A stretch of 29,440 nucleotides of DNA from a virus. Under the pieces are notes generated by a model. It had not been told where the DNA came from. It made no database searches and worked only from the letters and a program-made list of their open reading frames with translations. Every line of letters begins with the position of its first letter. Within the stretch, counting starts at the first letter, position 1. Both the position numbers and the translations under genes were made by a program. Positions 31-24,728 of this stretch are shown here, piece after piece. Where the stretch lies: IMG/VR virus record IMGVR_UViG_3300024344_000090, positions 1 to 29,440 of that record. One strand, given 5' to 3'.

Positions 31-336
31 ATGGCACGGCAAAACAATTACTATAGAGTAAACTCAAGCGAGAACTTGGCGGCTACTACAACGTCAGGAG
101 CTACCCGTACAGGAGCTTGTCCAGCAGGAGTTACGCAGGCTCGTATATCCGCAACTGCCTTGGCCTATGTAGAGGTAAAAGGTGGTCAGGGAGCAACTCC
201 TACTGCTACAGTTGCGGGTTCTGTTCAGATAAACCCATACGATGCAGAACAGTTCACAGTATTAGAAGGTGACAAGATTGCAGCAATTACTGCATCTGGA
301 ACCGCAACAGTGAACGTAACTTGGCTAGAGGGATAA
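31..336 (+). CDS. Small beta-rich phage protein, possible virion decoration protein
   Basis: This encodes 101 residues starting at ATG, with an AAGGA ribosome-binding site 9 nt upstream. The protein is rich in Ala, Thr, Gly and Val and has the alternating pattern of a beta-sandwich. Its second half contains motifs such as YVEVKGG and VLEGDKIAAI. It has no signal peptide or membrane segment. Small proteins of this look occur among phage head-decoration and tail-accessory proteins, but I cannot name the family with certainty. It sits directly before the tail-fibre cluster with a 6-nt gap, so a virion role is inferred from context. The 30 nt before it begin with TAA, which may be the stop of a gene outside the window. 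Confidence 0.75.
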   Translation: MARQNNYYRVNSSENLAATTTSGATRTGACPAGVTQARISATALAYVEVKGGQGATPTATVAGSVQINPYDAEQFTVLEGDKIAAITASGTATVNVTWLEG

Positions 337-342
337 CACGCT

Positions 343-1119
343 GTGGCTACAAACAAAAAGATCACAGAACTAACAGAACTAACCGAAGCTGATCTGGCTG
401 AAGATGATGTTATACCCATAGTTGACATTAGTGCTGGAACAACGCATAAAATTCAGAAGTCTACTCTAGCCGCTGCTGTAGCAGGTGTAGCGTCTGTAGC
501 TGCAACCAGCCCCATAGCTGTAGACACTTCTACAGGGGCTGTTACAGTCTCCACAGGAACCATTCCTGTAAACAAAGGCGGTACAGGAGCTACCACAGCC
601 ACTGCTGCTGCCACAGCCTTGGGAGTAGGTACAGGCGATAGCCCTCAGTTTACCGCTGTGAACGTAGGGGCTGCTTCTGACACAACCTTGGCACGAGCGA
701 GTGCAGGTAACTTGACAGTTGAAGGTAACGAGCTATATCGTGCTGGAGGCACTGACGTACCAGTTGCAGATGGCGGTACAGGAAGATCAACTCTTACAGC
801 GAACTATGCTCTTTTAGGAGATGGAACCAGTGCGGTTCAAATGATTGCTCCCGGCACTAGCGGAAATCTTCTAACCTCTAACGGCTCTACTTGGGCTTCC
901 ACCACCCCTGCTGCGGGAGGTGCAGGTTACTTTTTAGGGAATAGTTCAGGAGCTACAGGCGATACCACTAACGGATTGACCGATATCTTCAGAGTGAACA
1001 ATGCGGCTCTAGCAACTAGCGTTGTAATAGCTGCCTCTACTAACGCTTCTGCCACAGGGCCACTCACTGTCAATACTGGAATCACATTGACTGTAACTGG
1101 CACACTAGCTATCATCTAG
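343..1119 (+). CDS. Tail fibre-like protein with GGTG repeats
   Basis: This encodes 258 residues starting at GTG. The N-terminus (KKITELTELTEADLAEDD, then a VIPIVD segment) is a head module seen in many phage fibre proteins, presumably the part that docks on the virion. Two repeats follow, each opening with I/V-P-V-x-x-GGTG (residues about 74-82 and 140-147). The first continues into ALGVGTGDSPQF and the second into LLGDGTSAVQ; these are typical of trimeric fibre shafts. The C-terminus is Ser/Thr/Ala/Gly-rich beta sequence ending in a hydrophobic strand. It has no signal peptide. It is the first of five fibre or collar-type genes in a row. The fibre class is well supported; which receptor it binds cannot be told. 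Confidence 0.85.
   Translation: MATNKKITELTELTEADLAEDDVIPIVDISAGTTHKIQKSTLAAAVAGVASVAATSPIAVDTSTGAVTVSTGTIPVNKGGTGATTATAAATALGVGTGDSPQFTAVNVGAASDTTLARASAGNLTVEGNELYRAGGTDVPVADGGTGRSTLTANYALLGDGTSAVQMIAPGTSGNLLTSNGSTWASTTPAAGGAGYFLGNSSGATGDTTNGLTDIFRVNNAALATSVVIAASTNASATGPLTVNTGITLTVTGTLAII
577..783 (+). repeat. GGTG fibre-shaft repeat pair
   Basis: The 12-nt string GGCGGTACAGGA occurs exactly at 577-588 and again at 772-783. In both places it encodes the GGTG turn of a fibre-shaft repeat within the gene at 343-1119. Confidence 0.7.
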
Positions 1120-1128
1120 GGAAACGAT

Positions 1129-1815
1129 ATGAGTACTCTTAAAGCAGATACCGTCCAAAGTAAAAGTTCCAACACTGACTTGACCATAGCGGGGGATGGG
1201 ACAGGGGTTCCCAATCTGGAAGCAGGGTTCAAGGTTGGCGGCGTTGCGGGAGTACCCACCGCATCGATACAAGACGATGCAGTAACACTTGCAAAGATGG
1301 CTGCTGGAACAGATGGGAACTTGATTACCTACGATACCTCTGGTAATCCAGCCCATGTCGTAACAGGAAGTTCGGGACAAGTTTTGACCTCAAATGGTGC
1401 GGGAGCAGCCCCAACTTTTCAATCAGGTGGTCCTGACCAAGCATCTCAAGCTGAGATAGAAGGGGAAAGTAATGTCGATAAATACATCCCCCCTGATTTA
1501 CTAAAAAAAGCGCCTAGCTCGTGTAAGGTGTGGGCTTATGTCTCACGAGGCGGTGGAACACCAACTCTAGGTGGACCTTCTTATAACATGACAAGCGTGA
1601 CGGATGATGGGGATAGTCAAACAATTATGACCATAGCCACAGATTTTAGTTCCGTCACCTACAGCCCCGCTGCTGTTATGGTCGCTGATTCAACGAGCTT
1701 TGCTTTTGTCCACACATTGGCGGTTGGTTCTTTTAAGGTGAAGGTAGCTAACGATGGTGGTGGATCAGAAGATAGTAGAGACTTTGCTTGTCAAGCCTTT
1801 GGAGATCAGGCATGA
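1129..1815 (+). CDS. Tail fibre protein, paralogue A
   Basis: This encodes 228 residues starting at ATG. Residues 1-60 form a head module (MSTLKADTV; TDLTIAGDGTGVPNLEAG; GFKVGG; GVPTASIQDDAV) shared with the gene at 2274 and more distantly with the one at 3473. A Ser/Gly-rich linker follows (ITYDTSGNP, SSGQVLTSNGAG), typical of marine-phage fibres. Residues about 103-228 are a distinct C-terminal domain with WAYVSRGGG and many Thr/Ser/Val strands, the likely receptor-binding part. The stop overlaps the start of the next gene by 4 nt (ATGA), and that gene looks like its assembly chaperone. Assignment as a fibre is firm; target specificity is unknown. Confidence 0.85.
   Translation: MSTLKADTVQSKSSNTDLTIAGDGTGVPNLEAGFKVGGVAGVPTASIQDDAVTLAKMAAGTDGNLITYDTSGNPAHVVTGSSGQVLTSNGAGAAPTFQSGGPDQASQAEIEGESNVDKYIPPDLLKKAPSSCKVWAYVSRGGGTPTLGGPSYNMTSVTDDGDSQTIMTIATDFSSVTYSPAAVMVADSTSFAFVHTLAVGSFKVKVANDGGGSEDSRDFACQAFGDQA
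1201..1280 (+). repeat. Fibre head-module repeat, copy 1
   Basis: This stretch of the gene at 1129 is similar at DNA level to 2349-2430 in the gene at 2274. The longest exact match is 17 nt, GGAGTACCCACCGCATC, at 1249-1265 and 2397-2413. Both encode the GVPTAS part of the shared head module. Confidence 0.75.
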
Positions 1816-2270
1816 GGAAATTTGTAATTGTTAAGGACGGGATTGCACGAATTATGGAGGCTCAAGATTATGTCGATCCTTCAGATGAAATAAAGAAATG
1901 GCATCCCGATGACCAAGCCAAAGTTACTAGTGTTAGGGAAATTAGTGAAAGCGATATTCCTGTAAACAGAACTGTTGCGTTGCGAAATGCGTGGGAAGAT
2001 GATGGGACAAACATTACTGTCAACTTATCAAAAGCAAGGGTCAATAAAACAGATGAGATTAGACCAGAACGTAATTCTAGGTTGGCTGAGTTAGATGTTG
2101 AATACATCAGGGCTGATGAGGCTGGTAACACAGATAAAAAACAATCAATAGCCACGGTCAAGCAGCAGCTACGCGATCTCCCACAAACAATTCAGTCGGA
2201 TTTAGATGCTTTAGATACGCCAGATGCTTTAGAAAAATTCACTCCGACATGGCCGACTGAAGGAGAATAG
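1812..2270 (+). CDS. Tail fibre assembly chaperone-like protein 1
   Basis: This encodes 152 residues. I place the start at ATG 1812, which overlaps the preceding stop as ATGA and has GGAG just upstream, rather than at the in-frame ATG 24 nt earlier. The N-terminal half is a small charged domain (FVIVKDGIARIMEAQDYV). The C-terminal half has the R-x-x-R-L-x-x-x-D...QLRDLPQ...FTPTWPTE pattern of phage tail-fibre assembly and tail-assembly chaperone proteins (the PF16778-like C-terminal helical region). The same LRDLP...WPT ending recurs in the gene at 3101. Its position directly behind a fibre gene supports a role in folding or attaching that fibre. The family call rests on this C-terminal pattern only. 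Confidence 0.65.
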   Translation: MRKFVIVKDGIARIMEAQDYVDPSDEIKKWHPDDQAKVTSVREISESDIPVNRTVALRNAWEDDGTNITVNLSKARVNKTDEIRPERNSRLAELDVEYIRADEAGNTDKKQSIATVKQQLRDLPQTIQSDLDALDTPDALEKFTPTWPTEGE

Positions 2271-2273
2271 CAG

Positions 2274-3104
2274 ATGAGTACAATTAACGTCACGACAATA
2301 ATTCCCTCCGAAGGGACCAATACTGATCTTGATCTCTCAGGTAAAGGCACGGGTCGTCCTGATTTACAGGCTGGTTTCAAAGTTGGCGGCACTGCTGGAG
2401 TACCCACCGCATCCATTCGGGATGATGCGATCACTTCTGCCAAAATAGCAGATGATGCTGTCGTTACGGCTGCAATAGCTGATGATGCGATTACAGCAGC
2501 GTTAATGGCTGATGATGCCGTAGGAGTTGCTCAACTTTCGGCAACTGGCACAGCCTCTGCGAGTAATTTCCTGCGTGGTGACAATTCTTGGGCGGAAGCA
2601 GGTGGCGGTAAAATTCTCCAAGTAGTGTCCACCTACAACAACGATTATGCCTCACACTCAAATACGAATGTTGATTCACCAGCGGAAATTGTAACAGCGA
2701 CTATTACTCCAGCAGCAACATCCTCTAAAATTTTAATGATGGGGCATTTTACAGGCTCGTCTACTAGCGGCGATGTTCAGTTCGTAGGTATCAAACTCTA
2801 TAGAGATTCTACATTAATTGGTGAGGGCGATGCGAGTTCAAGAAACGGTACAGAAGGTGTTTTGCATACAGCGCAGTTTCGAGATGACCATTATTCCAAA
2901 CCAAGTTCCACTTCTTTGACATTCGTGGACAGTCCATCCAGTACATCCTCCATTACCTACCGATTAAAAGCCTTTGCCAACCATGTTTCTGGATCGTCAC
3001 TTTCTAATTTAACTTTGATACAAAATTCTGGTGGTTACGATTACAATAACAAAGAACAGGCTGTCGGAACGACAACTTTAATTTTAATGGAGATAGGCGC
3101 ATGA
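2274..3104 (+). CDS. Tail fibre protein, paralogue B
   Basis: This encodes 276 residues from ATG, preceded by AAGGAGA. Residues 1-50 match the head module of the gene at 1129 (TDLDLSGKGTGRPDLQAG; GFKVGG; AGVPTASIRDDAI). Four ten-residue repeats of the type DDAITxAxIA follow (residues about 50-89), predicted to be a helical or coiled-coil shaft. The C-terminal domain (from KILQVVSTYNND) contains TPAATSSKILMMGHF and finishes TTLILMEIGA, an ending common in marine-phage fibre tips. The C-terminal domain is unrelated by eye to that of paralogue A, so the head is conserved and the tip exchanged. The stop overlaps the following chaperone-like gene as ATGA. Confidence 0.87.
   Translation: MSTINVTTIIPSEGTNTDLDLSGKGTGRPDLQAGFKVGGTAGVPTASIRDDAITSAKIADDAVVTAAIADDAITAALMADDAVGVAQLSATGTASASNFLRGDNSWAEAGGGKILQVVSTYNNDYASHSNTNVDSPAEIVTATITPAATSSKILMMGHFTGSSTSGDVQFVGIKLYRDSTLIGEGDASSRNGTEGVLHTAQFRDDHYSKPSSTSLTFVDSPSSTSSITYRLKAFANHVSGSSLSNLTLIQNSGGYDYNNKEQAVGTTTLILMEIGA
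2349..2430 (+). repeat. Fibre head-module repeat, copy 2
   Basis: This is the second copy of the head-module segment described at 1201-1280. The conservation at nucleotide level suggests duplication or recombination between the two fibre genes. Confidence 0.75.
2421..2540 (+). repeat. Four 30-bp tandem repeats in fibre shaft
   Basis: Units begin at 2421, 2451, 2481 and 2511, each starting GATGATGC and each encoding ten residues (DDA-I/V...). The fourth unit is degenerate. The exact 30-bp period keeps frame and gives a repetitive shaft that could expand or contract by slippage. Confidence 0.85.
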
Positions 3105-3460
3105 GTATGCTTGGCTTAACAGAAACGCTGTTATCTCTTCAGCCAGAAGGACAAATTTGGAGATTCTCTGTCCTTGGTCATGTCACAGACGAGGCCACTT
3201 TTAATTCTAACGTGCGGTGGAACGAGCCAGAAACGGCTCCGATTGATTGGGCTGCTGTACAGGCTGCTGGCAATGTTGGGGAGGATATAGTTTCATGGAG
3301 ACAATTGCGCTGGAAACGGGACGAGCTTCTTGAGGAAACAGATTGGTGGATGATGCGTGGCAACGCTACGGAAGAGCAGTTGGCTTATCGACAAGCCCTG
3401 CGCGATCTCCCTGAGAACACAGACGATCCAGCCAATCCAACTTGGCCGACTAAGCCGTAG
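3101..3460 (+). CDS. Tail fibre assembly chaperone-like protein 2
   Basis: This encodes 119 residues from an ATG that overlaps the preceding fibre stop as ATGA, with GGAG upstream. The C-terminal part shows the strong pattern R-W-K-R-D-x-L-L-x-E-T-D-W-W, then YRQALRDLPENT and a final PTWPTKP, which is the classic signature of phage tail-fibre assembly and tail-assembly chaperones (PF16778-like). The N-terminal half (LLSLQPEGQIWRF) differs from the other copy. The signature is clearer here than in the gene at 1812. Placement behind fibre paralogue B suggests it is that fibre's dedicated chaperone. Confidence 0.75.
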   Translation: MSMLGLTETLLSLQPEGQIWRFSVLGHVTDEATFNSNVRWNEPETAPIDWAAVQAAGNVGEDIVSWRQLRWKRDELLEETDWWMMRGNATEEQLAYRQALRDLPENTDDPANPTWPTKP

Positions 3461-3472
3461 GAGTAACGATTT

Positions 3473-4204
3473 ATGACAAGCACGATCAAGGCCGATGTTG
3501 TAACAGCCCAGACTACTAACGGCAATGTGACATTGCAGGGAAACGGGACGGGTACTGTAGTTATTGGTGACAATACTGCCATCACTGGAACTACACCAAC
3601 ACTGACCATTGGCGATGCAGGGGCAGAGGATACAAAGATAGTTTTCGATGGAAACGCACAAGACTTTCATATTGGATTAGATGATACTGCTGATTCTCTT
3701 GTACTTGGTTTAGGATCAACTCTTGGAACAACCTCTCACATTGTGATGGATGCGACAGGTGCAGTTACAAAACCACTCACACCAGCATTTTTTGCTTACA
3801 ATTCGACTTCACGCAGCAATGTTACGGGTAATGCAGTTACTTATAATGTCGTTTTCGACACGGAAGTGTTTGACCAAAACGCTGACTTTGCATCAAATAC
3901 TTTTACTGCTCCAGTAACAGGAAGATACTTTTTACAAGGTCAGGTTTCAACAGATGCTCAAACCACTACAAATACAGATGGTATCTTAGCACTTGTTACC
4001 TCAAATCGAACATTAAGTGTTTATTATAATCCGGGCAATATGGAAGGTCCAGCCGCAACGGGACAATGTTCGATAAGTTTTTCTGGTATTTTTGATATGG
4101 ATGCTTCCGACACTGCATATGTGCAAGTAAAAATCTATCAGGGAACTCAGACCATTAATCTACAACCCACTAATACATTTTTCACAGGCGCACTTATAGC
4201 CTAG
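3473..4204 (+). CDS. Tail fibre protein with C1q/TNF-like tip
   Basis: This encodes 243 residues from ATG. The N-terminus (TSTIKADVV; TTNGNVTLQGNGTG) is a diverged version of the head module of the two preceding fibres. A repeat-like beta region with TIGDAGAEDTKIVFDG follows. Residues about 100-243 resemble a C1q/TNF-like jelly-roll: PAFFAYNST, then VVFDTEVFDQ, then FTAPVTGRYFLQGQV, then a late DTAYVQVKI and the ending TFFTGALIA. C1q-like domains form trimers and bind ligands at their tips, and they are known at the ends of some phage fibres. Unlike the other two paralogues, this one has no chaperone-like gene directly after it. Confidence in the C1q-like fold is moderate. Confidence 0.8.
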   Translation: MTSTIKADVVTAQTTNGNVTLQGNGTGTVVIGDNTAITGTTPTLTIGDAGAEDTKIVFDGNAQDFHIGLDDTADSLVLGLGSTLGTTSHIVMDATGAVTKPLTPAFFAYNSTSRSNVTGNAVTYNVVFDTEVFDQNADFASNTFTAPVTGRYFLQGQVSTDAQTTTNTDGILALVTSNRTLSVYYNPGNMEGPAATGQCSISFSGIFDMDASDTAYVQVKIYQGTQTINLQPTNTFFTGALIA

Positions 4205-4236
4205 GGCGAAATAACCAATCTTAAAGGAGATTAAAA

Positions 4237-4521
4237 ATGGCAAGTTTATCAGTAACAGTGACCATAGACGACACAGATCAAATGGTTCTGAAAAATGATA
4301 TATTAGATATTGATGAGTGGGTTCAAAACGCTGTAACAGGGAAGATTAATAATTGCTGGAAGCGTATGCAAAATAATTGGACTACAAAGTTGATTAATGA
4401 TGAATCTTTTACAGATTCTATTCCAAGCAATAAAACAGACTTTGTTACTTTGGTTACTTCAAGAGCAGATTATAAAGACCGTGCTGCAATGGATGCAGAA
4501 GGTAACACCATTGAAGATTAG
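4237..4521 (+). CDS. Small fibre-cluster protein of unknown function
   Basis: This encodes 94 residues from ATG with a strong AAAGGAG site. The sequence runs LSVTVTIDDTDQMVLKND, then DIDEWVQNAVTGKINNC with KRMQNNW, and ends in an acidic tail. Most of it looks helical and it has no signal peptide or membrane segment. Similar small proteins, with a short N-terminal strand and a WVxxAVxGKI helix, accompany tail-fibre genes in many aquatic phages, but I know of no assigned function. It lies between the C1q-like fibre and a secreted-type protein, with an 11-nt overlap with the latter if the TTG start there is correct. Confidence 0.7.
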   Translation: MASLSVTVTIDDTDQMVLKNDILDIDEWVQNAVTGKINNCWKRMQNNWTTKLINDESFTDSIPSNKTDFVTLVTSRADYKDRAAMDAEGNTIED

Positions 4522-4864
4522 ACAAACCTTAATATTCATAGCTTCTCTCGCAGTGGCAAGTATAGCTCTGAACACCTCGCTACACGCTCAATGTGCAAAG
4601 CCAGAAGCGGAGCTAACAGCAATTGGACAATACTGTGTAGATTCGTATGAACAGCTTGTTAAGGAAACAGAAGAGAAGGACCAGTTTTTAGCATTTGTAG
4701 GACTGACTGTGACAGGAACCCCTCTATGGTTCTTTGCCAGTTCCAAGGCTTTTAGCGTATTTTTCAGAGACTTTGCCACAGGGAAATACTGTACTGCTCC
4801 TAACTACTTTGGCAAAATTGTAGATAGTAATACTTCCGACACTGACTTAGGTGAACCAACATGA
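4511..4864 (+). CDS. Signal-peptide-bearing small membrane or periplasmic protein
   Basis: I choose TTG 4511, 8 nt after AGAAGG, over the in-frame ATG at 4493, which has no ribosome-binding site. This gives 117 residues beginning MKIRQ and then a hydrophobic stretch ending in LHA before QC, a good signal-peptidase-I-type leader (cleavage after about residue 26). A second hydrophobic stretch (FLAFVGLTVTGTPLWFF, about 59-75) may be a membrane helix. Four cysteines lie outside or at the edge of the leader-plus-helix region. It is odd to find an exported protein inside a tail-fibre cluster. A host-surface role, for example superinfection exclusion or lysis control, is possible but is only inference. 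The stop overlaps the next gene as ATGA. Confidence 0.6.
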   Translation: MKIRQTLIFIASLAVASIALNTSLHAQCAKPEAELTAIGQYCVDSYEQLVKETEEKDQFLAFVGLTVTGTPLWFFASSKAFSVFFRDFATGKYCTAPNYFGKIVDSNTSDTDLGEPT

Positions 4865-5349
4865 CTGTAGAATCTGCAACATATATAAGCCAGCTAAATA
4901 CCGCTTACCCTGCTGCTGGAGATAACATTTCTGAGGGTGACGATCATGTACGGTTGGTTAAATCAGTACTGAAAGCGCAGTTTCCAAACTTGGCTACCAC
5001 GGCTGTTTCGCAAACCAGCGCACAGATGAACAAACTTGGCTTTGAGGTGGGTACTATAGTGATGTTTGCTTCAGGAACAGCACCTACCACAGAGACTATC
5101 AGCGGTGTTAGAGATTGGCTACTGTGTGATGGTACTGCTTACAGTACCTCAACCTATTCTGCCCTATACGCTGTTGTTGGAGTAGTGTTTGGAACATCTG
5201 GAAGTGACTTTAGAGTTCCTGACTATAGAGCGCACATACCAGTAGGAGTTGGAGGAGCTTTTGTACTGGGAACTGCTCAAACCAAAGCTATAGGAACAGA
5301 GTCAGCCACTATAAGCCTACAGCCTATTAACTTTTTGATTAAAACATGA
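4861..5349 (+). CDS. Tail collar domain fibre protein
   Basis: This encodes 162 residues from an ATG overlapping the previous stop. Residues 1-55 are a short phage-docking module (ATYISQLN; GDNISEGDDHVRLVKSVLK). Residues about 61-135 are a phage tail-collar domain (PF07484 type): VGTIVMFASGTAP, then WLLCDGTAYS, ALYAVVGVVFG, FRVPDYRAHIPVGVG. Collar domains occur in short tail fibres and fibre tips of many phages. The protein ends shortly after the domain, so it is a compact, perhaps stub-like, fibre or collar subunit. The assignment is firm; the exact place in the virion is not. Confidence 0.9.
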   Translation: MTVESATYISQLNTAYPAAGDNISEGDDHVRLVKSVLKAQFPNLATTAVSQTSAQMNKLGFEVGTIVMFASGTAPTTETISGVRDWLLCDGTAYSTSTYSALYAVVGVVFGTSGSDFRVPDYRAHIPVGVGGAFVLGTAQTKAIGTESATISLQPINFLIKT

Positions 5350-5453
5350 CAAACCCAAAATGCGATAATCCAGACTGCGCTTGCGATCCTTGCGAGTGTA
5401 CAGAAGATGATCCTTGCAAATGTAGAAACGGGAGTGATGACGATGAAGTATGA
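5346..5453 (+). CDS. 35-residue cysteine-rich peptide, metallothionein-like spacing
   Basis: This short gene starts at an ATG that overlaps the collar gene's stop as ATGA and ends at TGA 5451-5453. The product has 35 residues, of which seven are cysteine, all within residues 6-26, with the pattern CDNPDCACDPCECTED followed by DPCKC. The repeated CxC and CxxC spacing with acidic residues between resembles small metal-thiolate proteins of the metallothionein class, though no specific family is recognised. The C-terminus is acidic (SDDDEV). Coding status is supported by the ATGA overlap upstream and the 11-nt overlap with the gene at 5443. A role in metal binding is inference. Confidence 0.65.
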   Translation: MTNPKCDNPDCACDPCECTEDDPCKCRNGSDDDEV

Positions 5454-5604
5454 ATCTAGTAAAAATTCTAACTACAAGAAAGAGGTGGGAGATCGTAACT
5501 TACCTCGCGGTGGTGGTGGGAATTATACAGAAGCAGAAGTTAAGAAAGGCGGTGACGGCAATCGTTACTACAAAGGTACTATCTACGGCAACAGCCGAGG
5601 TTAG
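5443..5604 (+). CDS. Small basic Gly-rich protein, unknown function
   Basis: I place the start at ATG 5443 with GGAG 8 nt upstream, giving 53 residues; a TTG 36 nt earlier is in frame but less well placed. The protein is basic and Gly/Asn/Tyr-rich, with RGGGGNYTEAEVKKGGDGN in the middle and a YYKGTIYGNSRG end. It looks largely disordered. No family is recognised. It overlaps the cysteine-rich peptide by 11 nt and precedes the gene at 5610 by 5 nt, so it is part of the same transcription unit leading to the capsid genes. Confidence 0.6.
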   Translation: MKYESSKNSNYKKEVGDRNLPRGGGGNYTEAEVKKGGDGNRYYKGTIYGNSRG

Positions 5605-5609
5605 CACTA

Positions 5610-5831
5610 GTGGATATTAAGGAACGTGCAAACCAAGCGTCTATAATTCTAAACAATCCCATCATTAAAGAAATGTGGGAAACTTTGGAAAAAGACCATA
5701 TTGCAAATTGGCTTAATACCGCTGATTATACTGAACAGGAATCATATTGGCATAAGATTAACGCTCTACGCTCCGTAAAGGAATACCTGGAATCGTTAGT
5801 TTATGCTGATAAGATCGAAAATAAAGAATAG
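5610..5831 (+). CDS. Small helical phage protein upstream of scaffold
   Basis: This encodes 73 residues starting at GTG. The product is helical and charged, with ANQASIILNNPIIKEMWETL and INALRSVKEYLESLV. Small proteins with the pattern 'NNPxxxE...Lxxxx...LRxVxxxLExL' are often encoded beside portal, scaffold and capsid genes in podoviruses and siphoviruses; their role is not established. It has no membrane segment. It is followed after 14 nt by the scaffold gene, so co-expression with head genes is likely. Confidence 0.72.
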   Translation: MDIKERANQASIILNNPIIKEMWETLEKDHIANWLNTADYTEQESYWHKINALRSVKEYLESLVYADKIENKE

Positions 5832-5845
5832 GGAGAAACCTAGTT

Positions 5846-6865
5846 ATGAGCGAAGGTCAGACCAATCCGCAAGCGGAAGTCACACAACCTGAACCACAAA
5901 TGAATATGTTTGATGTCATGTTTGGAAGTGAAGAAAGCACTAATCCAGAGCAAGCATCAGAACCTTCCCAGGTTCAACAGGAAGAAGTTATAGAAGAAGC
6001 CCCTATAGAGGCACAAGCCGAAGAAGAGGTGGAAGCAGACGTTCCTGAAGAAGTTGAGGAGCAGTACGAGGTAGAAGAAGCGGAGGTTGTTCAAGAAACC
6101 TCTGAAACAAGCCCTGATCCTGTATACCGTGTTAAGGTAGATGGAGAAGAGTTTGAGGTCAGTCTTGACGAGTTGCGTAACGGATATCAGCGGCAATCGG
6201 ATTACACCCGTAAGTCGCAATCTCTAGCAGAACAGAGGAAAGCTTACGAAGCCAACCTACAAGCTGTTCAAAATGAAAGGCAACAGTACGGACATATTTT
6301 GGAAAATGTTGGAAAATTCCAAGATATAGAGGTACAAAAACTTAACGATATAGATTGGGCATCTCTTAAAGATACTGACCCTATGGGCTATATGGAAAAG
6401 CGCATGGAGTTGCAAGAAGCAAGAGAAAAATCTTCCCAAGTTAAGGCCGAACAGACTAGAATAGCGCATCAAAGCCAGCAGGAACAAGCAGTAAGGATGC
6501 AAGATATTTTGCAGCATGAAGCTGGAAAACTTAAAGAAATACTCCCTGAATATGCTAATCCTAAGTCTGGTTTAAGGGACAAACTCAGGGACTATGCGTT
6601 AGGACTTGGTTTTGACCAACAGGATATAAATAACATAGCCGATCATCGCGTAGTCCTAGTATTGCACAAAGCAATGCTACAAGATGAAGCGAAGAGCGGG
6701 GCTGTTAAAAAGGTTTCTAAGAAGGTTCCAAAAGTTATGAAGTCGGGAACTCCTGAGAGTAAGACGCAACGTAATTCGCGTACCTTAAAGGGTAAACGGC
6801 AGAGATTGTCAAAGACGGGACATCCAAGAGATGCTGCAAATGTTTTTCTGGATATGATCTCTTGA
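5846..6865 (+). CDS. Capsid scaffolding protein
   Basis: This encodes 339 residues from ATG behind GGGAGA. Residues about 15-95 are extremely acidic and Glu/Gln/Pro-rich, as in many podovirus scaffolds. A conserved block follows, YRVKVDGEEFEVSLDELRNG and then YQRQSDYTRKSQ (about 95-125), which I associate with phage scaffold or capsid-assembly proteins. A long helical, Gln/Glu-rich coiled-coil region follows (about 125-220). The C-terminus is strongly basic (KKVSKKVPKVMKSG; TLKGKRQRL), the typical capsid-binding end of a scaffold. It lies 17 nt before the major capsid gene, the usual gene order. Function: guides assembly of the procapsid and is then removed. Confidence 0.85.
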   Translation: MSEGQTNPQAEVTQPEPQMNMFDVMFGSEESTNPEQASEPSQVQQEEVIEEAPIEAQAEEEVEADVPEEVEEQYEVEEAEVVQETSETSPDPVYRVKVDGEEFEVSLDELRNGYQRQSDYTRKSQSLAEQRKAYEANLQAVQNERQQYGHILENVGKFQDIEVQKLNDIDWASLKDTDPMGYMEKRMELQEAREKSSQVKAEQTRIAHQSQQEQAVRMQDILQHEAGKLKEILPEYANPKSGLRDKLRDYALGLGFDQQDINNIADHRVVLVLHKAMLQDEAKSGAVKKVSKKVPKVMKSGTPESKTQRNSRTLKGKRQRLSKTGHPRDAANVFLDMIS

Positions 6866-6882
6866 TGAAAGGATAGCCAACT

Positions 6883-7845
6883 ATGGCACAACCAACTGGA
6901 GTATACGTTACATTCTCCTCCAAGGGTCTTAGAGAAGACCTTGAGAATGTAATTTACGACATCTCTCCTACAGAAACGCCCTTCATGTCGATGGGTGGTA
7001 GGACTGATGCTATTGCAGTAAATCACGAGTGGCAGACTGACGCTCTTGCGACTGCTGTTGCTACTAACTTTAACGAGGAAGGTGCAACGCTTACTGCCGC
7101 TGAACCTGCCGCAACTACTAGACTTGGTAATATCTGTCAGATCAGCTTGAAAACTACGCTGGTTTCTGGCACGTTAGATGCCGTGTCGAAAGCTGGACGT
7201 AAGGAAGAACTTGCGTACCAGATGTCTAAACGTGCTGCTGAATTGAAGCGCGATATGGAAACGAGCTTGATAGGCGCGAATACTGGTAAAACCGCTATGT
7301 CCGCTGATTCTACTGTTCGTAAACTAGGGAGTTTGACTTCTTGGATAACCACCAACGCTAGTATTGGCTCTGGTGGTACGGCAGTTGGCTCTGGGGGCGC
7401 AGGTGCAGTTCGTACCGATGGTACGCAACGTGCGTTCACGGAAACACTGCTAAAAGCCGTTATTCTTCTTGCCTATAACAACGGTGCCAACACCAAGTAC
7501 TTGATGATGGCTCCTGCTCAGAAGCAGACGTTCTCTAGCTTTGTGGGCGTAGGCGGGTCTAGTGGCGTTTCTAACTGGACTGATACGGCTGATGGTCGTA
7601 TAATCGGTGGTATGGATATCTATGTATCCGACTTTGGTGAAATGGCCGTTGTTCCTAACCGTTTCCAACGGTCTAGGGATGTATGGCTTCTTGATCCTGA
7701 GTACTACAAGTTAGCTTATCTACGTCCGTTCAACCAGAGAGAAGTAGCTTCTACTTCTGATGGTGAGCAACGTGCTATTATCGTTGAATATACCTTACAG
7801 GTAGATAACGAGAAGGCACACGGCGCGGTCTACGATCTTAGCTAG
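6883..7845 (+). CDS. Major capsid protein (SU10/DUF5309-type, HK97 fold)
   Basis: This encodes 320 residues from ATG with AAAGGA upstream. Features of the DUF5309/SU10-like major head protein group are visible: an N-terminal LREDLENVIYDISPTETPF segment, then NHEWQTDAL with NFNEEGATL, the long helix region AYQMSKRAAELKRDMETS, and near the C-terminus VWLLDPEYYKLAYLRPF, then DGEQRAIIVEYTLQVDNEKA. It assembles with the scaffold upstream into the icosahedral head. A terminator-like hairpin follows the gene at once, consistent with its being the most abundantly made product of the late transcript. The length of about 320 residues is normal for this group. Confidence 0.93.
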   Translation: MAQPTGVYVTFSSKGLREDLENVIYDISPTETPFMSMGGRTDAIAVNHEWQTDALATAVATNFNEEGATLTAAEPAATTRLGNICQISLKTTLVSGTLDAVSKAGRKEELAYQMSKRAAELKRDMETSLIGANTGKTAMSADSTVRKLGSLTSWITTNASIGSGGTAVGSGGAGAVRTDGTQRAFTETLLKAVILLAYNNGANTKYLMMAPAQKQTFSSFVGVGGSSGVSNWTDTADGRIIGGMDIYVSDFGEMAVVPNRFQRSRDVWLLDPEYYKLAYLRPFNQREVASTSDGEQRAIIVEYTLQVDNEKAHGAVYDLS

Positions 7846-7858
7846 ACTGTTCAACTAC

Positions 7859-7889
7859 GGGAGGGGTCTTAACGGCCTCTCCCAATTTT
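7859..7889 (+). terminator. Rho-independent terminator-like hairpin after capsid gene
   Basis: The arms GGGAGGGGTC (7859-7868) and GGCCTCTCCC (7874-7883) pair over ten positions (two G-U wobbles in RNA) around a TTAAC loop, followed by AATTTT. It lies 13 nt after the capsid stop and before the next gene's ribosome-binding site. A partial terminator here would raise capsid transcript relative to downstream genes. Confidence 0.75.
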
Positions 7890-7903
7890 GAGGAGATTGG
7901 ATA

Positions 7904-8212
7904 GTGAGTGACCCAATCAAAAGAAATTTCAGATACGATCATACCGATGATAAGGGTATAGTACACTCTACACAAGATGTACAGCCTTTGCTCGACATGA
8001 ATAAAAAGGAAATTAACGGAGACTCTCTCTACGATACTAGCAAAGCTCCTATGGGTTTGCGTAAAGTTGCTAGTATTCCTCTTATCGTTATAGAGAAGTG
8101 GAGAACTGAGCTAGGCGTAGATGTAATGAATAAAGATCATATGCCAAAGGTTAAACAACTTTTGAACGATCCAGAGTATGCGTATCTCCGCACCCATAAC
8201 AGTAGGATTTAG
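7904..8212 (+). CDS. Unknown phage head-tail region protein
   Basis: This encodes 102 residues starting at GTG, with GAGGAG upstream. The product is charged and soluble: KRNFRYDHTDDKGIVHS near the start, VQPLLDMNKKEING in the middle and VASIPLIVIEKWRTELGVD later. No family or catalytic motif is recognised. It lies between the capsid gene and the adaptor gene, where podoviruses often encode small head-completion or head-tail proteins, so a connector role is a reasonable guess from context only. It is the first gene after the capsid terminator and is 3 nt from the next gene. Confidence 0.75.
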   Translation: MSDPIKRNFRYDHTDDKGIVHSTQDVQPLLDMNKKEINGDSLYDTSKAPMGLRKVASIPLIVIEKWRTELGVDVMNKDHMPKVKQLLNDPEYAYLRTHNSRI

Positions 8213-8215
8213 CAA

Positions 8216-8872
8216 GTGAGCCTAGCTACCTTTTCAGACTTGAAGTCAAGTGTTGCGAACTACCTTAACCGCAACGATTTAGACGCTGTGATACCTGATT
8301 TCGTAACACTTACTGAAAACAGGCTAAACAGGGACTTGCGTGTAAGGACTAACCTTATCCGCGCAGAGACTACTACGACTGCCAGCACTGCTTTCTATAA
8401 CTTACCTAATGATCTTATAGAACTCAGAAACATTACCTACGATACGGCAAGCAGCAGTTACTCGTTAGAATACTTGTCTCCAGAGTCGCTCAGTAGGGAG
8501 TACGGGGCTTACACTAGCGGTAAACCTAGGGCGTATACTAATCTAGGTAAGGACATCAAACTTGGTCCTACTCCTGATGCAGCGTATACGATCAATATAA
8601 ACTACTTCAAAAAGCTTGAGACTTTATCAGATGCTAATACTACAAACCTGATACTTACAGAGTTTCCAGAGCTATACTTGTTTGGAGCTTGCTTAGAAGG
8701 AGCTATATACTTAAACGATACAGAGCAGTTACAGCGGTTCATGGGACTATACCAGCAAACTTTAGGAGAAGTTAAAGCGGCTGAAGATGCGGCTAGATAT
8801 GGTGGTACAGTGATGACCATGACTACTCAAGGTGATCCTGGTGCTATGGTTCGTAGAGGAGCTTATGGTTAA
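8216..8872 (+). CDS. Head-tail adaptor / tail tubular A-like protein
   Basis: This encodes 218 residues starting at GTG. The sequence fits the phage adaptor group (P22 gp4 / T7 gp11-like in role): an N-terminal LKSSVANYLNRNDLDAVIPD, then FVTLTENRLNRDLRVRT, then FYNLPNDLIELRNITY, a segment predicted as beta strands (IKLGPTPDAAYTININYFKK) and a C-terminal helical part (ELYLFGACLEGAIYLND; QQTLGEVKAAEDAARYGG). It should form a ring below the portal that links the head to the tail hub. The next gene overlaps its stop by 1 nt. Confidence 0.85.
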   Translation: MSLATFSDLKSSVANYLNRNDLDAVIPDFVTLTENRLNRDLRVRTNLIRAETTTTASTAFYNLPNDLIELRNITYDTASSSYSLEYLSPESLSREYGAYTSGKPRAYTNLGKDIKLGPTPDAAYTININYFKKLETLSDANTTNLILTEFPELYLFGACLEGAIYLNDTEQLQRFMGLYQQTLGEVKAAEDAARYGGTVMTMTTQGDPGAMVRRGAYG

Positions 8873-9018
8873 TGCCTGAAACAAACTGGGTATACGATGA
8901 GTTTGACTTGGTGCAGGAAACGGGCGGTAATATACTGCACGAGGACGGTGACTATATCTGCCTACAAGAGTTTGACTCTACTACTTGGCCTGCACAGACA
9001 TCAGCGGGGTCAGGCTGA
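8872..9018 (+). CDS. 48-residue acidic protein, unknown function
   Basis: The ATG at 8872 shares its A with the TAA of the adaptor gene. The reading frame runs 48 codons to TGA 9016-9018, which in turn overlaps the next gene's ATG (TGATG). The product is acidic and aromatic-rich, with NWVYDEFDLVQETGGN and then DYICLQEFDSTTW, suggesting two short beta hairpins. No family is recognised. The exact overlaps on both sides are the main evidence that it is a real gene, and they suggest it is made in step with the adaptor and stabilisation proteins. Confidence 0.6.
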   Translation: MPETNWVYDEFDLVQETGGNILHEDGDYICLQEFDSTTWPAQTSAGSG

Positions 9019-10586
9019 TGGCTAAACAGATGCACGACATTAACGGCACTCAGGCTGGTTTTTCGTATAACAAAGACTTGTCTCCCTATGATATGCCCCC
9101 GCATTTTTTCGATGAGGTAGTTAATGCTAGGTTTGTAGATAGGAAGGCTGGAACCATAACAGGACACTCCCAGGTGCTTGGTACTCCAACAGTTGCTCCC
9201 TATTGGGCTATAGAGTGGGATAAAGGGGGTACTTCTCTCTGGATATACGGTGGATTGACAACGCTACACAAGATTACAGGCACTACTCACGCTGCTGTTA
9301 CCCGCTCTAGCGGTGCATACACTACCATAGCCAGTACCACAAACAATTGGCAAGGTGCGGTTCTAGGCGGTGTTCTTGTGGCTAATAACGGAATAGATGT
9401 TCCGCAAAGCTTCACTCAAGCTGGTTCACTATTCACAGATTTACCTAACTGGCCTGCTACGCTACGATGTAAAGTTATCGTTCCCTTTAAGAACCATTTG
9501 GTAGCCTTAAACTTAACAGATAGCAGTACTGAGAAACCTTACTCTATACGCTGGAGTGACGCTATACCAGAAGGTGCTGCTACTAATGGTGCTAATACTT
9601 GGGTAACTAGTAGTACAGCTTCAGAAGCAGCGGAGACTACTCTAGGCGGTACTAAAGGTCATTTGCTCAACGCTGTTCAACTAGGTAACGAGCTTATCAT
9701 ATATAAGGAAGATAGTGTATACAGTCTTAACTATGTAGGTGGGTCTTTTACCTTTAACATCAGGGAGAAGTTTAAGGACACAGGTTTGTTTGCCAGAGAT
9801 GCGGTTGTAGACCTAGGGGATGGTAGGCACGTTCTAATGAGTACCAACGATGTTGTGGCTCACAACGGCAATCAGATTACCAGCGTTATAGACGATAAGA
9901 TGAAAACACTTCTGTTTTCGGAGATAGACACTACAAACTTCCATAGGACATTCTTAGCACATAATAAAATCCAGAACGAGGTATGGATATGCTATCCAAA
10001 GACTAATGCTACAAACGGATTTCCTGATCGTGCGCTTATCTGGAACTATAGGGACGATACTTGGACGCAGCGAGAGTTACCTAACTGTATGTATATAGCT
10101 AAAGGTTTGGTCAATCCTGCTCTTACAAACACATGGACGGCTTCTACAAAGACATGGAATACTTCCACACTAGGTTGGTCACAGCAGGAATATAACCCCG
10201 CCATTGACTCTCTGCTAATATGCGGAACTAACGATACAAGGTTGTATCTAGCTGATTCAGGAACTACGTTTGACGGTACAGGTTTTACCACAACTTTGGA
10301 AAGAACTGGTCTTCACGCTGGTCAGACAGATATGGTAAAATCTGTTACGGGGCTATACCCCAGAATAGAGGGAACTGGTACAGTGGATATAAGCGTGGGG
10401 TCTGAGAATCAGCCTTTTGAGGGTGTTACCTATGCTACCCCCGTAACCTATACCATAGGGTCAGATCACAAGATAGACTGTAGGGTTAAGGGTAGATACA
10501 TAGCGGTTAAGTTTGAAACTGAGGAAGACACTACGTTCAAGTTGTCAGGATATGCGCTGGAAGCAGAGGTTGTGTCCACAAGATGA
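9018..10586 (+). CDS. Tail stabilisation / tail tube B-like protein
   Basis: This encodes 522 residues. I start it at ATG 9018, which overlaps the previous stop as TGATG; an in-frame TTG at 8985 lies inside the upstream gene. The protein is almost entirely beta-rich with repeated short strand-turn units typical of a propeller-like tail protein: GGVLVANNGIDVPQSF, KVIVPFKNHLVALNL, YSIRWSDA, LGNELIIYKEDSVYSLNYVG, HVLMSTNDVVAHNGNQI and FPDRALIWNYRDDTW. Proteins with this pattern are annotated as phage stabilisation proteins (P22 gp10-like) in podoviruses, and they occupy the position of T7 gp12. It should complete the short tail below the adaptor. The next gene overlaps as ATGA. Confidence 0.83.
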   Translation: MAKQMHDINGTQAGFSYNKDLSPYDMPPHFFDEVVNARFVDRKAGTITGHSQVLGTPTVAPYWAIEWDKGGTSLWIYGGLTTLHKITGTTHAAVTRSSGAYTTIASTTNNWQGAVLGGVLVANNGIDVPQSFTQAGSLFTDLPNWPATLRCKVIVPFKNHLVALNLTDSSTEKPYSIRWSDAIPEGAATNGANTWVTSSTASEAAETTLGGTKGHLLNAVQLGNELIIYKEDSVYSLNYVGGSFTFNIREKFKDTGLFARDAVVDLGDGRHVLMSTNDVVAHNGNQITSVIDDKMKTLLFSEIDTTNFHRTFLAHNKIQNEVWICYPKTNATNGFPDRALIWNYRDDTWTQRELPNCMYIAKGLVNPALTNTWTASTKTWNTSTLGWSQQEYNPAIDSLLICGTNDTRLYLADSGTTFDGTGFTTTLERTGLHAGQTDMVKSVTGLYPRIEGTGTVDISVGSENQPFEGVTYATPVTYTIGSDHKIDCRVKGRYIAVKFETEEDTTFKLSGYALEAEVVSTR

Positions 10587-10846
10587 GTAAGGAATTTCTA
10601 CGCTTTGATCCAGCACCCGTACCAAACAATGTTGAGGATTTGCCTACCTACCTTGCTAACACACTGCTTGAAATACGGGCGGCTATAGAGGTTGCTAGAA
10701 ACGGGCATCTGGACGTAGTATACGCTGAACCAGACAAGCCCTATCAAGGAGATATCCGATATGCTGATGGAACAAGCTGGAACCCAGGCAGTACAGGAGA
10801 AGGAATATACTTTTACAACGCCGCTGGAGCATGGGTTAAGCTATAA
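10583..10846 (+). CDS. Small virion-associated protein, unknown function
   Basis: This encodes 87 residues from an ATG overlapping the preceding stop as ATGA. The first half is helical (VEDLPTYLANTLLEIRAAIE). The second half is a short beta domain with PYQGDIRYADGTSWNPGSTG and EGIYFYNAAGAWVKL, a pattern common in small phage tail-associated proteins. No enzymatic motif is seen. The last 86 nt of the gene also encode the start of the next gene in another frame. A tail-accessory role is inferred from position. Confidence 0.75.
   Translation: MSKEFLRFDPAPVPNNVEDLPTYLANTLLEIRAAIEVARNGHLDVVYAEPDKPYQGDIRYADGTSWNPGSTGEGIYFYNAAGAWVKL
10746..10751 (+). promoter_or_regulatory. Ribosome-binding site inside the upstream gene
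   Basis: AAGGAG lies 9 nt before ATG 10761, within the coding region of 10583-10846. It is the best ribosome-binding site for the following gene and decides its start in favour of the long overlap. Confidence 0.55.
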
Positions 10847-11252
10847 GCACGTTGATATAAGATCACCCAATGCCAAGTCACTAGTGTCACAATGTTGGGA
10901 CTTTATAGAAGCAGGGGTGGAACAAGGTGGTAGTAAGGAATTTCTAACTACCGATTACCTGATTAAAAAGGTTTTAGAAAGAGATTCAGATTTATGGGTA
11001 TCGCAGGACGAGGGCGATAACATAGTAGGGGCTTTAATCATAGGGGCCGCTCCGTACCCTACAGAAACAGGAATTATGGCCGAATCAATAGGTGGTACAT
11101 TTAACTTTAACACTCTTGTACCAATGCTGGAGAAGTTTTATAGGGCTAGGGGTTATAAGTTTTTTGAAATGACGGGACGTAAAGGTTGGGAGCGGAAAAT
11201 GAAACCGCTAGGGTATACATACATGAACACTACTATATATAAGAGGTTGTAA
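10761..11252 (+). CDS. GNAT acetyltransferase-like internal virion protein
   Basis: This encodes 163 residues from ATG 10761, chosen for the AAGGAG site 9 nt upstream; the recognisable domain starts only at about residue 29 (HVDIRSPNAKSLV), so a later start near 10824 (CTG) cannot be excluded. The pattern of a small mixed alpha/beta domain with FLTTDYLIKKVLERD, VGALIIGAAPYP, LVPMLEKFYRARGYKFFEM and MKPLGYTYMNTTIYKRL resembles phage GNAT-like proteins, including the group of T7 gp13-type internal virion proteins. The acetyl-CoA binding motif (RxxGxG) is not evident, so enzymatic activity is doubtful. It opens the run of ejection-type genes. Confidence 0.72.
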   Translation: MLMEQAGTQAVQEKEYTFTTPLEHGLSYKHVDIRSPNAKSLVSQCWDFIEAGVEQGGSKEFLTTDYLIKKVLERDSDLWVSQDEGDNIVGALIIGAAPYPTETGIMAESIGGTFNFNTLVPMLEKFYRARGYKFFEMTGRKGWERKMKPLGYTYMNTTIYKRL

Positions 11253-21236: not shown

Positions 21237-22061
21237 CTACACCCCGCACATTCCTTCACAATTTTCAAGCTGCCCAAAATCAAACGTATCCTGCTTGGAC
21301 TTCTCTATAAAGTTAATATCTCCAAGGGGTTGACACGATCTGTGTAGATACACCTTATCATCGTTCTTTGTACCAGTTCGTATCATGTCATCAAACTGAA
21401 CAACATCTGCAAACTCGTTGGGAAACTCGTCCTTTAGTTGTTGCCACTCTAAATTAGTTTTATAGGGGCAGAAAGTACAGGCTGATCTAGGCGGGGTACG
21501 TTTGTAGTTTTCCTCAAACCACTGTATGCAATCAGCCCTTTTGAATTTATTTTCTATTAGGGGATACACGTTTGTAATCCATTTGATACGGTTGGTAGTC
21601 ATACGCATTACTTCATCGTAACTAATGCCCATAACCATATCGACATTAGTACCCCTTTTCCTTTTCTCCCCCTTTTTAAGCCCTAGAAGCTCTCTAACCT
21701 TCTGGTTGACAGGGTTTATTTTGTAGTTAGAAGTACACTGGCGGCGTAGTAAACCCTTCTTGCCCGTCTTGCCATTAACAGTAAACAGAGGTATGGTTAA
21801 AAAATTGTACCGCCCTGTACCACAACTGCTGTTTATAGTGTCTAGTTTAAGATCACCAAAGCTGACTGTATGAACAGGGAAGGATAGCTGGTCTTTTAAC
21901 CAGGATAGGTGGTTATAGGTTGCAGCCCCTTCCCCTAAAGTATCCGCAAAGATGGCGCAGTCAACCATAGGTAACTCGCCTCTTTCAATCATAAGTGCCA
22001 GTGTAGATGATTGAACTCCTGCGCCTAGGGATAGTACCCTCAAGTTAGTTTTATACACCAC
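21237..22061 (-). CDS. PP-loop PAPS-reductase-like protein with Fe-S-type cysteines
   Basis: This encodes 274 residues starting at GTG 22061 (GTG 22058 is equally possible), overlapping the RNR stop by 11 nt. The PP-loop for ATP/adenylate is clear at residues 10-20 (LSLGAGVQSST), followed by the strand VDCAIFADTLGE. Cysteines at about 109 (RRQCTSNYK), 195 and 198 (SACTFCPYK), 268 and 272 (ENCEGMC) could hold an Fe-S cluster. The classic CysH motif (ECGLH) is absent, so an assimilatory sulfate-reduction role is not supported. Members of this superfamily also modify tRNA or DNA with sulfur. Its coupling to RNR suggests a nucleotide or thiol-redox function; that is inference. Confidence 0.88.
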   Translation of the reverse strand: MVYKTNLRVLSLGAGVQSSTLALMIERGELPMVDCAIFADTLGEGAATYNHLSWLKDQLSFPVHTVSFGDLKLDTINSSCGTGRYNFLTIPLFTVNGKTGKKGLLRRQCTSNYKINPVNQKVRELLGLKKGEKRKRGTNVDMVMGISYDEVMRMTTNRIKWITNVYPLIENKFKRADCIQWFEENYKRTPPRSACTFCPYKTNLEWQQLKDEFPNEFADVVQFDDMIRTGTKNDDKVYLHRSCQPLGDINFIEKSKQDTFDFGQLENCEGMCGV

Positions 22062-23894: not shown

Positions 23895-24728
23895 TCAGAA
23901 AGTTGCGGCATTTTCTACCTTAGCCTTCTTTTTGCCCAGGAACCATACAGGTCTTCCGCTCTTGAACTCCAAGTTTACATCCTCTGCTTCCCAACATATC
24001 TTTTTATGGGAGCAGTAAGAGCAGTTTATTGCCAGCTTCTTGCGCTTGGTAGTCCTGTCCAGAACCGCCTCAAACGGCCTCTTAGGGGGTTCCTCACCTT
24101 CTAGTGCCTTGCGTACCTCTTTAATGCGCTTAGGAGTGTCCTCAAGCTCTGAGTGGGTGTAAGTGGCAAGTTCTCCGCTACTCTTATCAAAGGCCAGGAA
24201 AGTTCCGCTATCCTTGTCAAGAGCGTTAGCATAACCGCTGATCTGAGAAATATACCCAAACGGATCATCGTCAGGTAACGTACCGTTCTTAAACTTCTTC
24301 ATACCATAGCTGGAACTAGACTTTACATCAGTCAACTGGTCATCAATTACGGCATCAATGTGGCCCTTTATACCGTCTATTTCGATCTGTTTCTGTTGAT
24401 CCGCAACATCGTGACCAGCTTCCTTAGCCAGGTATAAGATAACAGCCTCTACGACATCCCCGATCATAAACTTGAGCTTGGTTTGAGGTAGTAAAGGCTC
24501 AGGCTCGTGCGTACCTTTGATATCGTACCAGAGAGCGCGAGTACATGGCTTGCCTATGTTAGACATGCGGAGAGCGGGTTTTCTACCACTAGTGCTGCTC
24601 CAAAGCTGCCTACGCACCCCTTCCATCATTGTAGATGCCATCCCAAACAAGTATTCCTGGTTGGGAGACTTGGTTCCATTGTTCAGAAGACTGTATATGT
24701 CTTCCACCAGTGTATCAATTTTCTTCAT
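23895..24728 (-). CDS. Cas4/RecB-like PD-(D/E)XK exonuclease with Fe-S cluster
   Basis: This encodes 277 residues from an ATG with GGAG 7 nt upstream, overlapping the previous gene by 14 nt. The nuclease motif is seen as KGHIDAVID (D125), then TDVKSSSS (D134, K136), with the supporting Gln in YISQISGYANAL (Q162) and Glu in GDVVEAV (about E94). C62 (GKPCTRALWY) together with C236, C239 and C245 (CSYCSHKKIC) matches the cysteine layout of Cas4/AddB-type 4Fe-4S nucleases. The role is likely 5' or 3' end processing and host-DNA breakdown, comparable to the T7 gp6 exonuclease by position. No Cas genes are near, so this is a phage replication enzyme. Confidence 0.88.
   Translation of the reverse strand: MKKIDTLVEDIYSLLNNGTKSPNQEYLFGMASTMMEGVRRQLWSSTSGRKPALRMSNIGKPCTRALWYDIKGTHEPEPLLPQTKLKFMIGDVVEAVILYLAKEAGHDVADQQKQIEIDGIKGHIDAVIDDQLTDVKSSSSYGMKKFKNGTLPDDDPFGYISQISGYANALDKDSGTFLAFDKSSGELATYTHSELEDTPKRIKEVRKALEGEEPPKRPFEAVLDRTTKRKKLAINCSYCSHKKICWEAEDVNLEFKSGRPVWFLGKKKAKVENAATF

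What the first reader, a model, noticed from the sequence alone, without database searches (positions are those of the whole stretch)
343..5349. Array of five fibre/collar proteins, three sharing a head module but with unrelated tips
The genes at 1129, 2274 and 3473 share an N-terminal module (TNTDL...GxGTG...GFKVGG...GVPTAS in the first two, diverged in the third) joined to three visibly different C-terminal domains. DNA-level identity survives between the first two (17-nt exact match at 1249-1265 and 2397-2413). This looks like duplication followed by tip exchange, letting one virion carry, or switch between, several receptor-binding proteins. The arrangement is seen in the sequence; multi-receptor use is inference.
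Basis: partly seen in the sequence, partly recalled or inferred. Interest (0 to 1): 0.6.

Follow-up and report, generated by a model that had tools for sequence, protein, structure and literature searches.

The report
Three-headed modular phage tail-fibre array
This aquatic phage carries one anchor protein and three small tail fibres of three distinct head types, each with its own swappable tip; the same one-plus-three arrangement recurs in many unrelated phages, which suggests that the three fibres work together as one multi-receptor grip on the host.

Summary
In detail: genes at 1129, 2274 and 3473 share an N-terminal head and carry unrelated tips. Gene 343 is the virion anchor and ends in a ~66-residue cap domain; the collar gene (4861) is a constant neighbour, not an array member. 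Each tip travels with its own downstream helper gene (two APC chaperones, one other ORF). In 32 non-redundant relatives this locus is hypervariable; heads occur only where the cap does, and the window's three tips elsewhere sit directly on the anchor's N-terminus (one at 87% identity). The cap ends unrelated anchors in diverse phages, T4-like ones included. Of 46 untruncated, non-redundant caps, 42 have exactly three head-bearing fibre genes: 36 all downstream, 6 one upstream plus two downstream. Head type is slot-specific; tips are not. One stem+tip+chaperone cassette is 95-100% identical in DNA on two different heads, so tip exchange is shown directly. I propose that the three fibres assemble together on the anchor cap, possibly as an A:B:C heterotrimer, unusual because phage fibres are normally homotrimers. 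Assembly and multi-receptor use remain inferred. No inversion-type switching was found.

The parts
343..1119 (+). f1: anchor fibre; N-terminal ~78 aa conserved in relatives as the virion-attachment end of the fibre, C-terminal cap domain
   Evidence: f1N found in 93 loci, in many of them as N-terminus of one long fibre; PHROG tail fibre hits E 1e-5
913..1119 (+). cap domain (f1C), last ~66 aa of f1, ends at the stop codon
   Evidence: Same domain at the C-terminus of unrelated anchors; 108 of 115 HMM hits end at the C-terminus
1129..1815 (+). f2: slot-1 fibre, head MSTLKADT (codons 1-26), stem, tip of the '...GDLA' family (residues ~127-228)
   Evidence: head HMM, AF2 tip pLDDT ~82 and Foldseek matches to cyanophage tail fibres, tip homologue on f1N head in L112
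1812..2270 (+). c2: tail-fibre chaperone (PF16778), ATGA overlap with f2
   Evidence: Pfam 1.4e-6, 28.5 bits above cut-off 26.6; start; co-occurs with f2-type tip in L112
2274..3104 (+). f3: slot-2 fibre, head MSTINVTTIIP, DDA-repeat stem, tip of the '...LMEIA' family
   Evidence: PHROG 6942 tail fibre 6e-14; a profile of this tip family matches PDB 9efk orf22, 18 chains, E 1.6e-22
3101..3460 (+). c3: tail-fibre chaperone (PF16778), ATGA overlap with f3
   Evidence: Pfam 1.1e-13; follows f3-like tips in L051 and L180
3473..4204 (+). f4: slot-3 fibre, head MTSTIKADVVTAQ, tip C1q/TNF-like (3781-4201)
   Evidence: Pfam C1q E 1.1e-4, just under cut-off; tip 87% identical on f1N in L307
4237..4521 (+). 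s4: 94-aa tip-linked ORF in the position of a chaperone, no family
   Evidence: 84% identical and linked to the f4 tip in L307, linked also in L119
1249..1265 (+). 17-nt exact match to 2397-2413, at the head/stem join
2397..2413 (+). 17-nt exact match to 1249-1265
4861..5349 (+). collar-domain protein (PF07484); constant flank, not an array member
   Evidence: Pfam 1.3e-15; present in 121 loci whatever the array

Best explanation
This is a modular receptor-binding cassette. The anchor protein f1 binds the virion with its N-terminus and ends in a cap domain. Three small fibres (f2, f3, f4), each with a different class of ~20-30-residue head, attach to that cap. Each carries a stem and an exchangeable tip, and each tip comes with its own helper gene. 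One virion therefore displays three different tips on one anchor. Tips are replaced by recombination at the join just after the head, so the head set (one of each class) stays while the receptor specificities change. Shown here: the architecture, its recurrence, the slot-specificity of heads and the exchange of tip cassettes. Inferred: head-to-cap docking, co-display on one virion, receptor binding.
For: Cap and heads co-occur: in the window's family (32 non-redundant regions plus the window) head genes are found only where the cap is. Across aquatic phages, 42 of 46 untruncated non-redundant caps have three head genes; the first starts -25 to +43 nt after the cap's stop, often by ATGA overlap. 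Tandem CAP-HHH-CAP-HHH arrays keep the rule, as does isolate HMO-2011 with two arrays and Synechococcus phage Sf-FP1 and Nostoc phage Nsp-JY18 with one. Heads are more alike within a slot than between slots (0.401 vs 0.324; 500 label permutations reach at most 0.026 difference against 0.078 observed), tips barely (0.073 vs 0.070). Tip cassette exchange at DNA level. The window's three tips occur directly on f1N heads in relatives without cap (L112, L180/L058, L148/L307). L055 slot 2 keeps a head with no tip (70 aa), as if the head itself is required.
Against: No complex was modelled; the f1 monomer model failed (mean pLDDT 46) and the f2 head is unstructured as a monomer. Caps without three heads exist: L225 lineage 1, L234 0, L254 1-2, L290 third cap 1, Prochlorococcus MED4-213 1, Lentibacter ICBM1 0, Vibrio 1.232.O 2. 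The broad head profile was trained on the genes directly downstream of caps, so 'first gene has a head' is partly by construction (the narrow profile and genes 2 and 3 are not). Arrays share ancestry, so permutation p values overstate independence.
Confidence: 0.72

Rival explanations
1. Heterotrimer form of the same model: one chain each of head classes A, B and C make a single three-chain stalk that continues end-to-end from the three-fold f1 cap, ending in three different tips.
For: Number three nearly invariant, in HHH or H-CAP-HH order; one of each class whatever the gene order, ABC in the window, L013, L055 and L216, ACB in L207-L210 (8 of 10 arrays at k=4 with 16 residues); ATGA coupling and often one chaperone per three fibres; a three-fold cap offers equivalent sites, so discrimination of classes is easiest if the heads pair with each other; precedent of a 1:1:1 heterotrimer of three consecutive tail proteins in virophage DSLV2 (PMC12724248).
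Against: Window tips belong to three different families and stems differ in length; the f3-type tip family is found in a fibre with 18 chains in PDB 9efk, which looks like six homotrimers (the reading as homotrimers is inference); single-head arrays exist; the class split fails for L131 and L286, and at k=3 for all ten arrays.
Confidence: 0.45
2. Homotrimer form: f2, f3 and f4 are three separate homotrimeric fibres that dock at three distinct sites on the anchor, as in branched fibres of Ackermannviridae or T5-like DT57C.
For: Each window fibre has its own helper gene; C1q-like tips are of a kind usually homotrimeric (own knowledge); branched systems are known (PMC11414711, PMC4728585).
Against: Does not explain why the count is almost always three and why one of each head class is kept.
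Confidence: 0.38
3. The heads are only a common N-terminal fibre motif of aquatic phages, and the fibres attach elsewhere on the virion, not to f1.
For: Head-like N-termini also occur in some genes farther downstream of arrays.
Against: Within the window's family heads never occur without the cap, and the cap moves between unrelated anchors together with them.
Confidence: 0.15
4. Locally duplicated fibres used one at a time by phase-variable switching.
Against: No inverted repeats of 20 nt or more in 300-5400; all genes on one strand, densely packed; old, conserved head classes.
Confidence: 0.04

Closest known systems
Branched receptor-binding complexes (Ackermannviridae tail spikes, PMC11414711; T5-like DT57C LtfA/LtfB, PMC4728585; abstracts seen)
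   Same: Several receptor-binding proteins on one anchor, exchangeable C-terminal parts
   Different: Here a small mobile cap domain and three short head classes with the number fixed at three; tips are small beta domains, no enzymatic tail spikes recognised; docking not shown
Tripartite heterotrimeric tail proteins of virophage DSLV2 (PMC12724248)
   Same: Three consecutive genes, positional conservation, proposed 1:1:1 assembly
   Different: DSLV2 proteins all carry PF07484 collar domains; window fibres do not. Those proteins are predicted to sit on the capsid; here a tail anchor is involved
Alteromonas phage fibre plus chaperone modules shared by podo-, myo- and siphoviruses (PMC10579305)
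   Same: Fibre and cognate chaperone move as a unit between unrelated phages
   Different: One fibre per module; DUF4376 chaperones rather than PF16778; no cap plus three heads described in the sections read
Puniceispirillum phage HMO-2011 gp41-gp37 and gp33-gp29
   Same: Same cap plus three-head architecture, twice
   Different: Annotated only as individual tail fibre or C1q proteins in the record

Membership tests
Phage_tail_APC chaperone PF16778 | Score above curated cut-off | tested here: met
   c2 28.5 and c3 51.2 bits, cut-off 26.6
C1q domain PF00386 | Score above curated cut-off | tested here: inconclusive
   f4 22.8 bits vs cut-off 23.7, E 1.1e-4
Phage tail collar PF07484 | Score above cut-off | tested here: met
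   4861-5349, 57.5 bits; f1-f4 not matched
Branched receptor-binding complex | One anchor, further receptor-binding proteins encoded next to it with conserved N-terminal heads and variable tips | tested here: met
Branched receptor-binding complex | Secondary fibres physically dock on the anchor | not testable with these tools
   No complex prediction available; f1 monomer model failed
DSLV2-type tripartite tail | Each of the three proteins has a PF07484 collar domain | tested here: not met
DSLV2-type tripartite tail | Three consecutive genes with position-specific sequence | tested here: met
DSLV2-type tripartite tail | 1:1:1 heterotrimer | not testable with these tools
   needs multimer modelling or biochemistry
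Invertible fibre switch (Mu/P1 type) | Inverted repeats flanking alternative tips | tested here: not met

The most novel reading that the evidence does not exclude
Many aquatic phages, including this one, build a heterotrimeric tail fibre: one chain from each of three head classes on a trimeric cap, ending in three different interchangeable tips, so a single fibre can bind three receptors. Array sizes of three genes (heterotrimer) or one gene (homotrimer) would follow from trimer stoichiometry.
Probability: 0.42. Interest if true: 0.82.

Novelty: new variant of a known kind. Interest (0 to 1): 0.62.

Why it matters
Phage tail fibres are generally homotrimers with one tip. A widespread 'cap plus three head classes' rule in aquatic phages of different kinds would explain how these phages carry several receptor-binding tips and exchange them without breaking assembly. 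It gives a simple sequence rule for finding receptor-binding tips in metagenomes, where most such genes are labelled hypothetical, and it makes heterotrimeric fibres directly testable in isolated phages such as HMO-2011.

Tried and rejected
Megablast of the window against known phages: no match. Head against known phages by tblastn: no match. Cap in bacterial genomes (GTDB): none confirmed. Cap and GDLA-family profiles against PDB sequences: nothing credible. Foldseek of the f2 model in PDB: nothing below E 0.1, but BFVD gave cyanophage tail fibres. AF2 of f1 as monomer failed. Unsupervised three-class clustering of heads (k=3) did not give one of each per array; k=4 with 16 residues did for 8 of 10. 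Phase variation by inversion rejected. Head-like genes counted as a 'fourth' in some arrays were judged separate genes because of ~400-nt gaps or low scores.

Full report
OBSERVATION. The three genes at 1129, 2274 and 3473 do share a head. All pairs exceed 2000 shuffles in the first 60 residues, and the tips do not match each other. The 17-nt identity is real and beyond chance. It lies at codons 31-50, where f2 and f3 are 78% identical in DNA, while codons 1-30 are only 52-53% identical. So the DNA identity marks a join downstream of the head, not the head itself.

SETTING. The window is a 29.4-kb virus record of a phage with head scaffolding and capsid genes downstream and a replication block on the other strand. 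No annotated phage is close. The nearest major capsid protein is 53% identical, in uncultured spring-water phages; Methylophilales phage Venkman and pelagiphage HTVC106P follow at about 43%. Relatives from IMG/VR are syntenic: a small protein (31-336), the f1 N-terminus, a variable stretch, then collar, scaffold and capsid.

SINGLE-FIBRE RELATIVES. In most relatives the variable stretch starts with one fibre carrying the f1 N-terminus. The tips of f2, f3 and f4 occur there directly behind the f1 N-terminus: f2 type with its chaperone type in L112, f3 type in L058 and L180, f4 type in L148. The clearest case is L307, a 641-aa fibre with the f1 N-terminus (81%) and the f4 tip (87%), followed by the f4-linked ORF (84%); DNA is 88.7% identical from window 3781 to 4567. 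Tips and their downstream helpers are therefore units that can sit on different anchors.

CAP AND HEADS. Where the three-head array is present, f1 ends in a distinct ~66-residue domain. In the window's family the heads were found only in loci with that domain. The same domain ends unrelated anchors in other phages, including the T4-like Methylophilales phage Melnitz. A profile search of the loci gave 115 hits, 108 of them ending at the protein's C-terminus. Of 55 non-redundant caps, 36 have exactly three head genes directly downstream, 6 have one upstream and two downstream, 9 are cut by contig ends and 4 are exceptions; these numbers are my reading, with L226's third head and L131's heads read. 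Tandem arrays repeat as cap, three heads, cap, three heads (L249-L251, L298). HMO-2011 has two such arrays, Synechococcus phage Sf-FP1 and Nostoc phage Nsp-JY18 one each. Exceptions among isolates are MED4-213 (one head), Lentibacter ICBM1 (none) and Vibrio 1.232.O (two recognised).

SLOT-SPECIFIC HEADS, FREE TIPS. Across 34 arrays, heads in the same slot are more alike than heads in different slots, far beyond label permutation; tips hardly are. In the window's wider lineage the classes are MSTLKAD (A), MST.[NE]-type with IIP or ATGTNT (B) and MTST.KADV...TT.G (C), in order ABC or ACB. L207 slot 3 and L208 slot 2 have heads of different class (50% DNA identity over 60 nt) joined to the same stem, tip and chaperone (95-100% over ~630 nt, then 75-98%). 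L055 slot 2 is a head without a tip.

TIPS. The f2 tip is modelled as an eight-strand beta domain with pLDDT about 82 and matches predicted tail-fibre proteins of cyanophages such as Syn5, S-CAM7 and P-SSP6. The f3 tip belongs to a family whose profile matches a solved 658-aa 'orf22' present in 18 chains. The f4 tip is C1q-like, just below Pfam's cut-off.

MECHANISM. I infer that the heads dock on the cap and that all three tips are displayed. The near-constant number three and the one-of-each-class pattern fit a heterotrimer best, since a three-fold cap has equivalent sites and would not by itself sort three classes. The presence of a helper gene for each window fibre and of different tip families fits three homotrimers about as well. 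A published heterotrimer of three consecutive tail proteins in virophage DSLV2 (PMC12724248) shows that the first option is physically possible, but those proteins carry collar domains and the window's fibres are not members of that family by the test made here.

LIMITS. The broad head profile was trained on first-downstream genes, so the statement about first genes is partly circular; the narrow profile and the second and third genes are independent. Related arrays are not independent samples. No complex could be modelled, and nothing here shows receptor binding or expression. The literature search covered open-licence papers only, so earlier descriptions of the cap-plus-three rule may exist.

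Noticed in passing
window 4397-4864: ORF between the array and the collar gene; relatives match mostly from about residue 34-41, where LKIRQTLIFIASLAVASIALNTSLHAQ reads like a signal peptide, so the real gene probably starts near 4511 and encodes a ~117-aa secreted protein of unknown role, common in relatives.
   Followed up: partly
L131 1185-2057: After the slot-1 fibre an overlapping 290-aa ORF has repeats that look like a beta-propeller (RVALIYAPYHLRMYDFNGTTWSQ...), possibly a separate adhesin that caps that fibre.
   Followed up: no
L300 (HMO-2011) 5692-10953: The isolated phage HMO-2011 carries two complete cap-plus-three-fibre arrays in tandem, annotated only as single genes.
   Followed up: partly
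L249, L250, L251, L298: Contigs with two cap-plus-three arrays in tandem; in L249-L251 the second cap is a minimal 78-aa protein with little besides the cap domain.
   Followed up: partly
window 2421-2521: Three ~30-nt tandem repeats encoding IADDAVT-type repeats in the f3 stem.
   Followed up: no
window 21237-23748, minus strand: PAPS reductase-like gene overlapping a ribonucleotide reductase large-subunit gene, likely auxiliary metabolic genes.
   Followed up: no
window 24715-25335, minus strand: ORF matching PHROG 'NAD synthetase' and several homing endonuclease families, probably an endonuclease between the exonuclease and ssDNA-binding genes.
   Followed up: no
L128: A 7.2-kb contig 99.88% identical to window 955-8194 (9 mismatches, no gaps), so the array is unlikely to be an assembly chimera.
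   Followed up: yes
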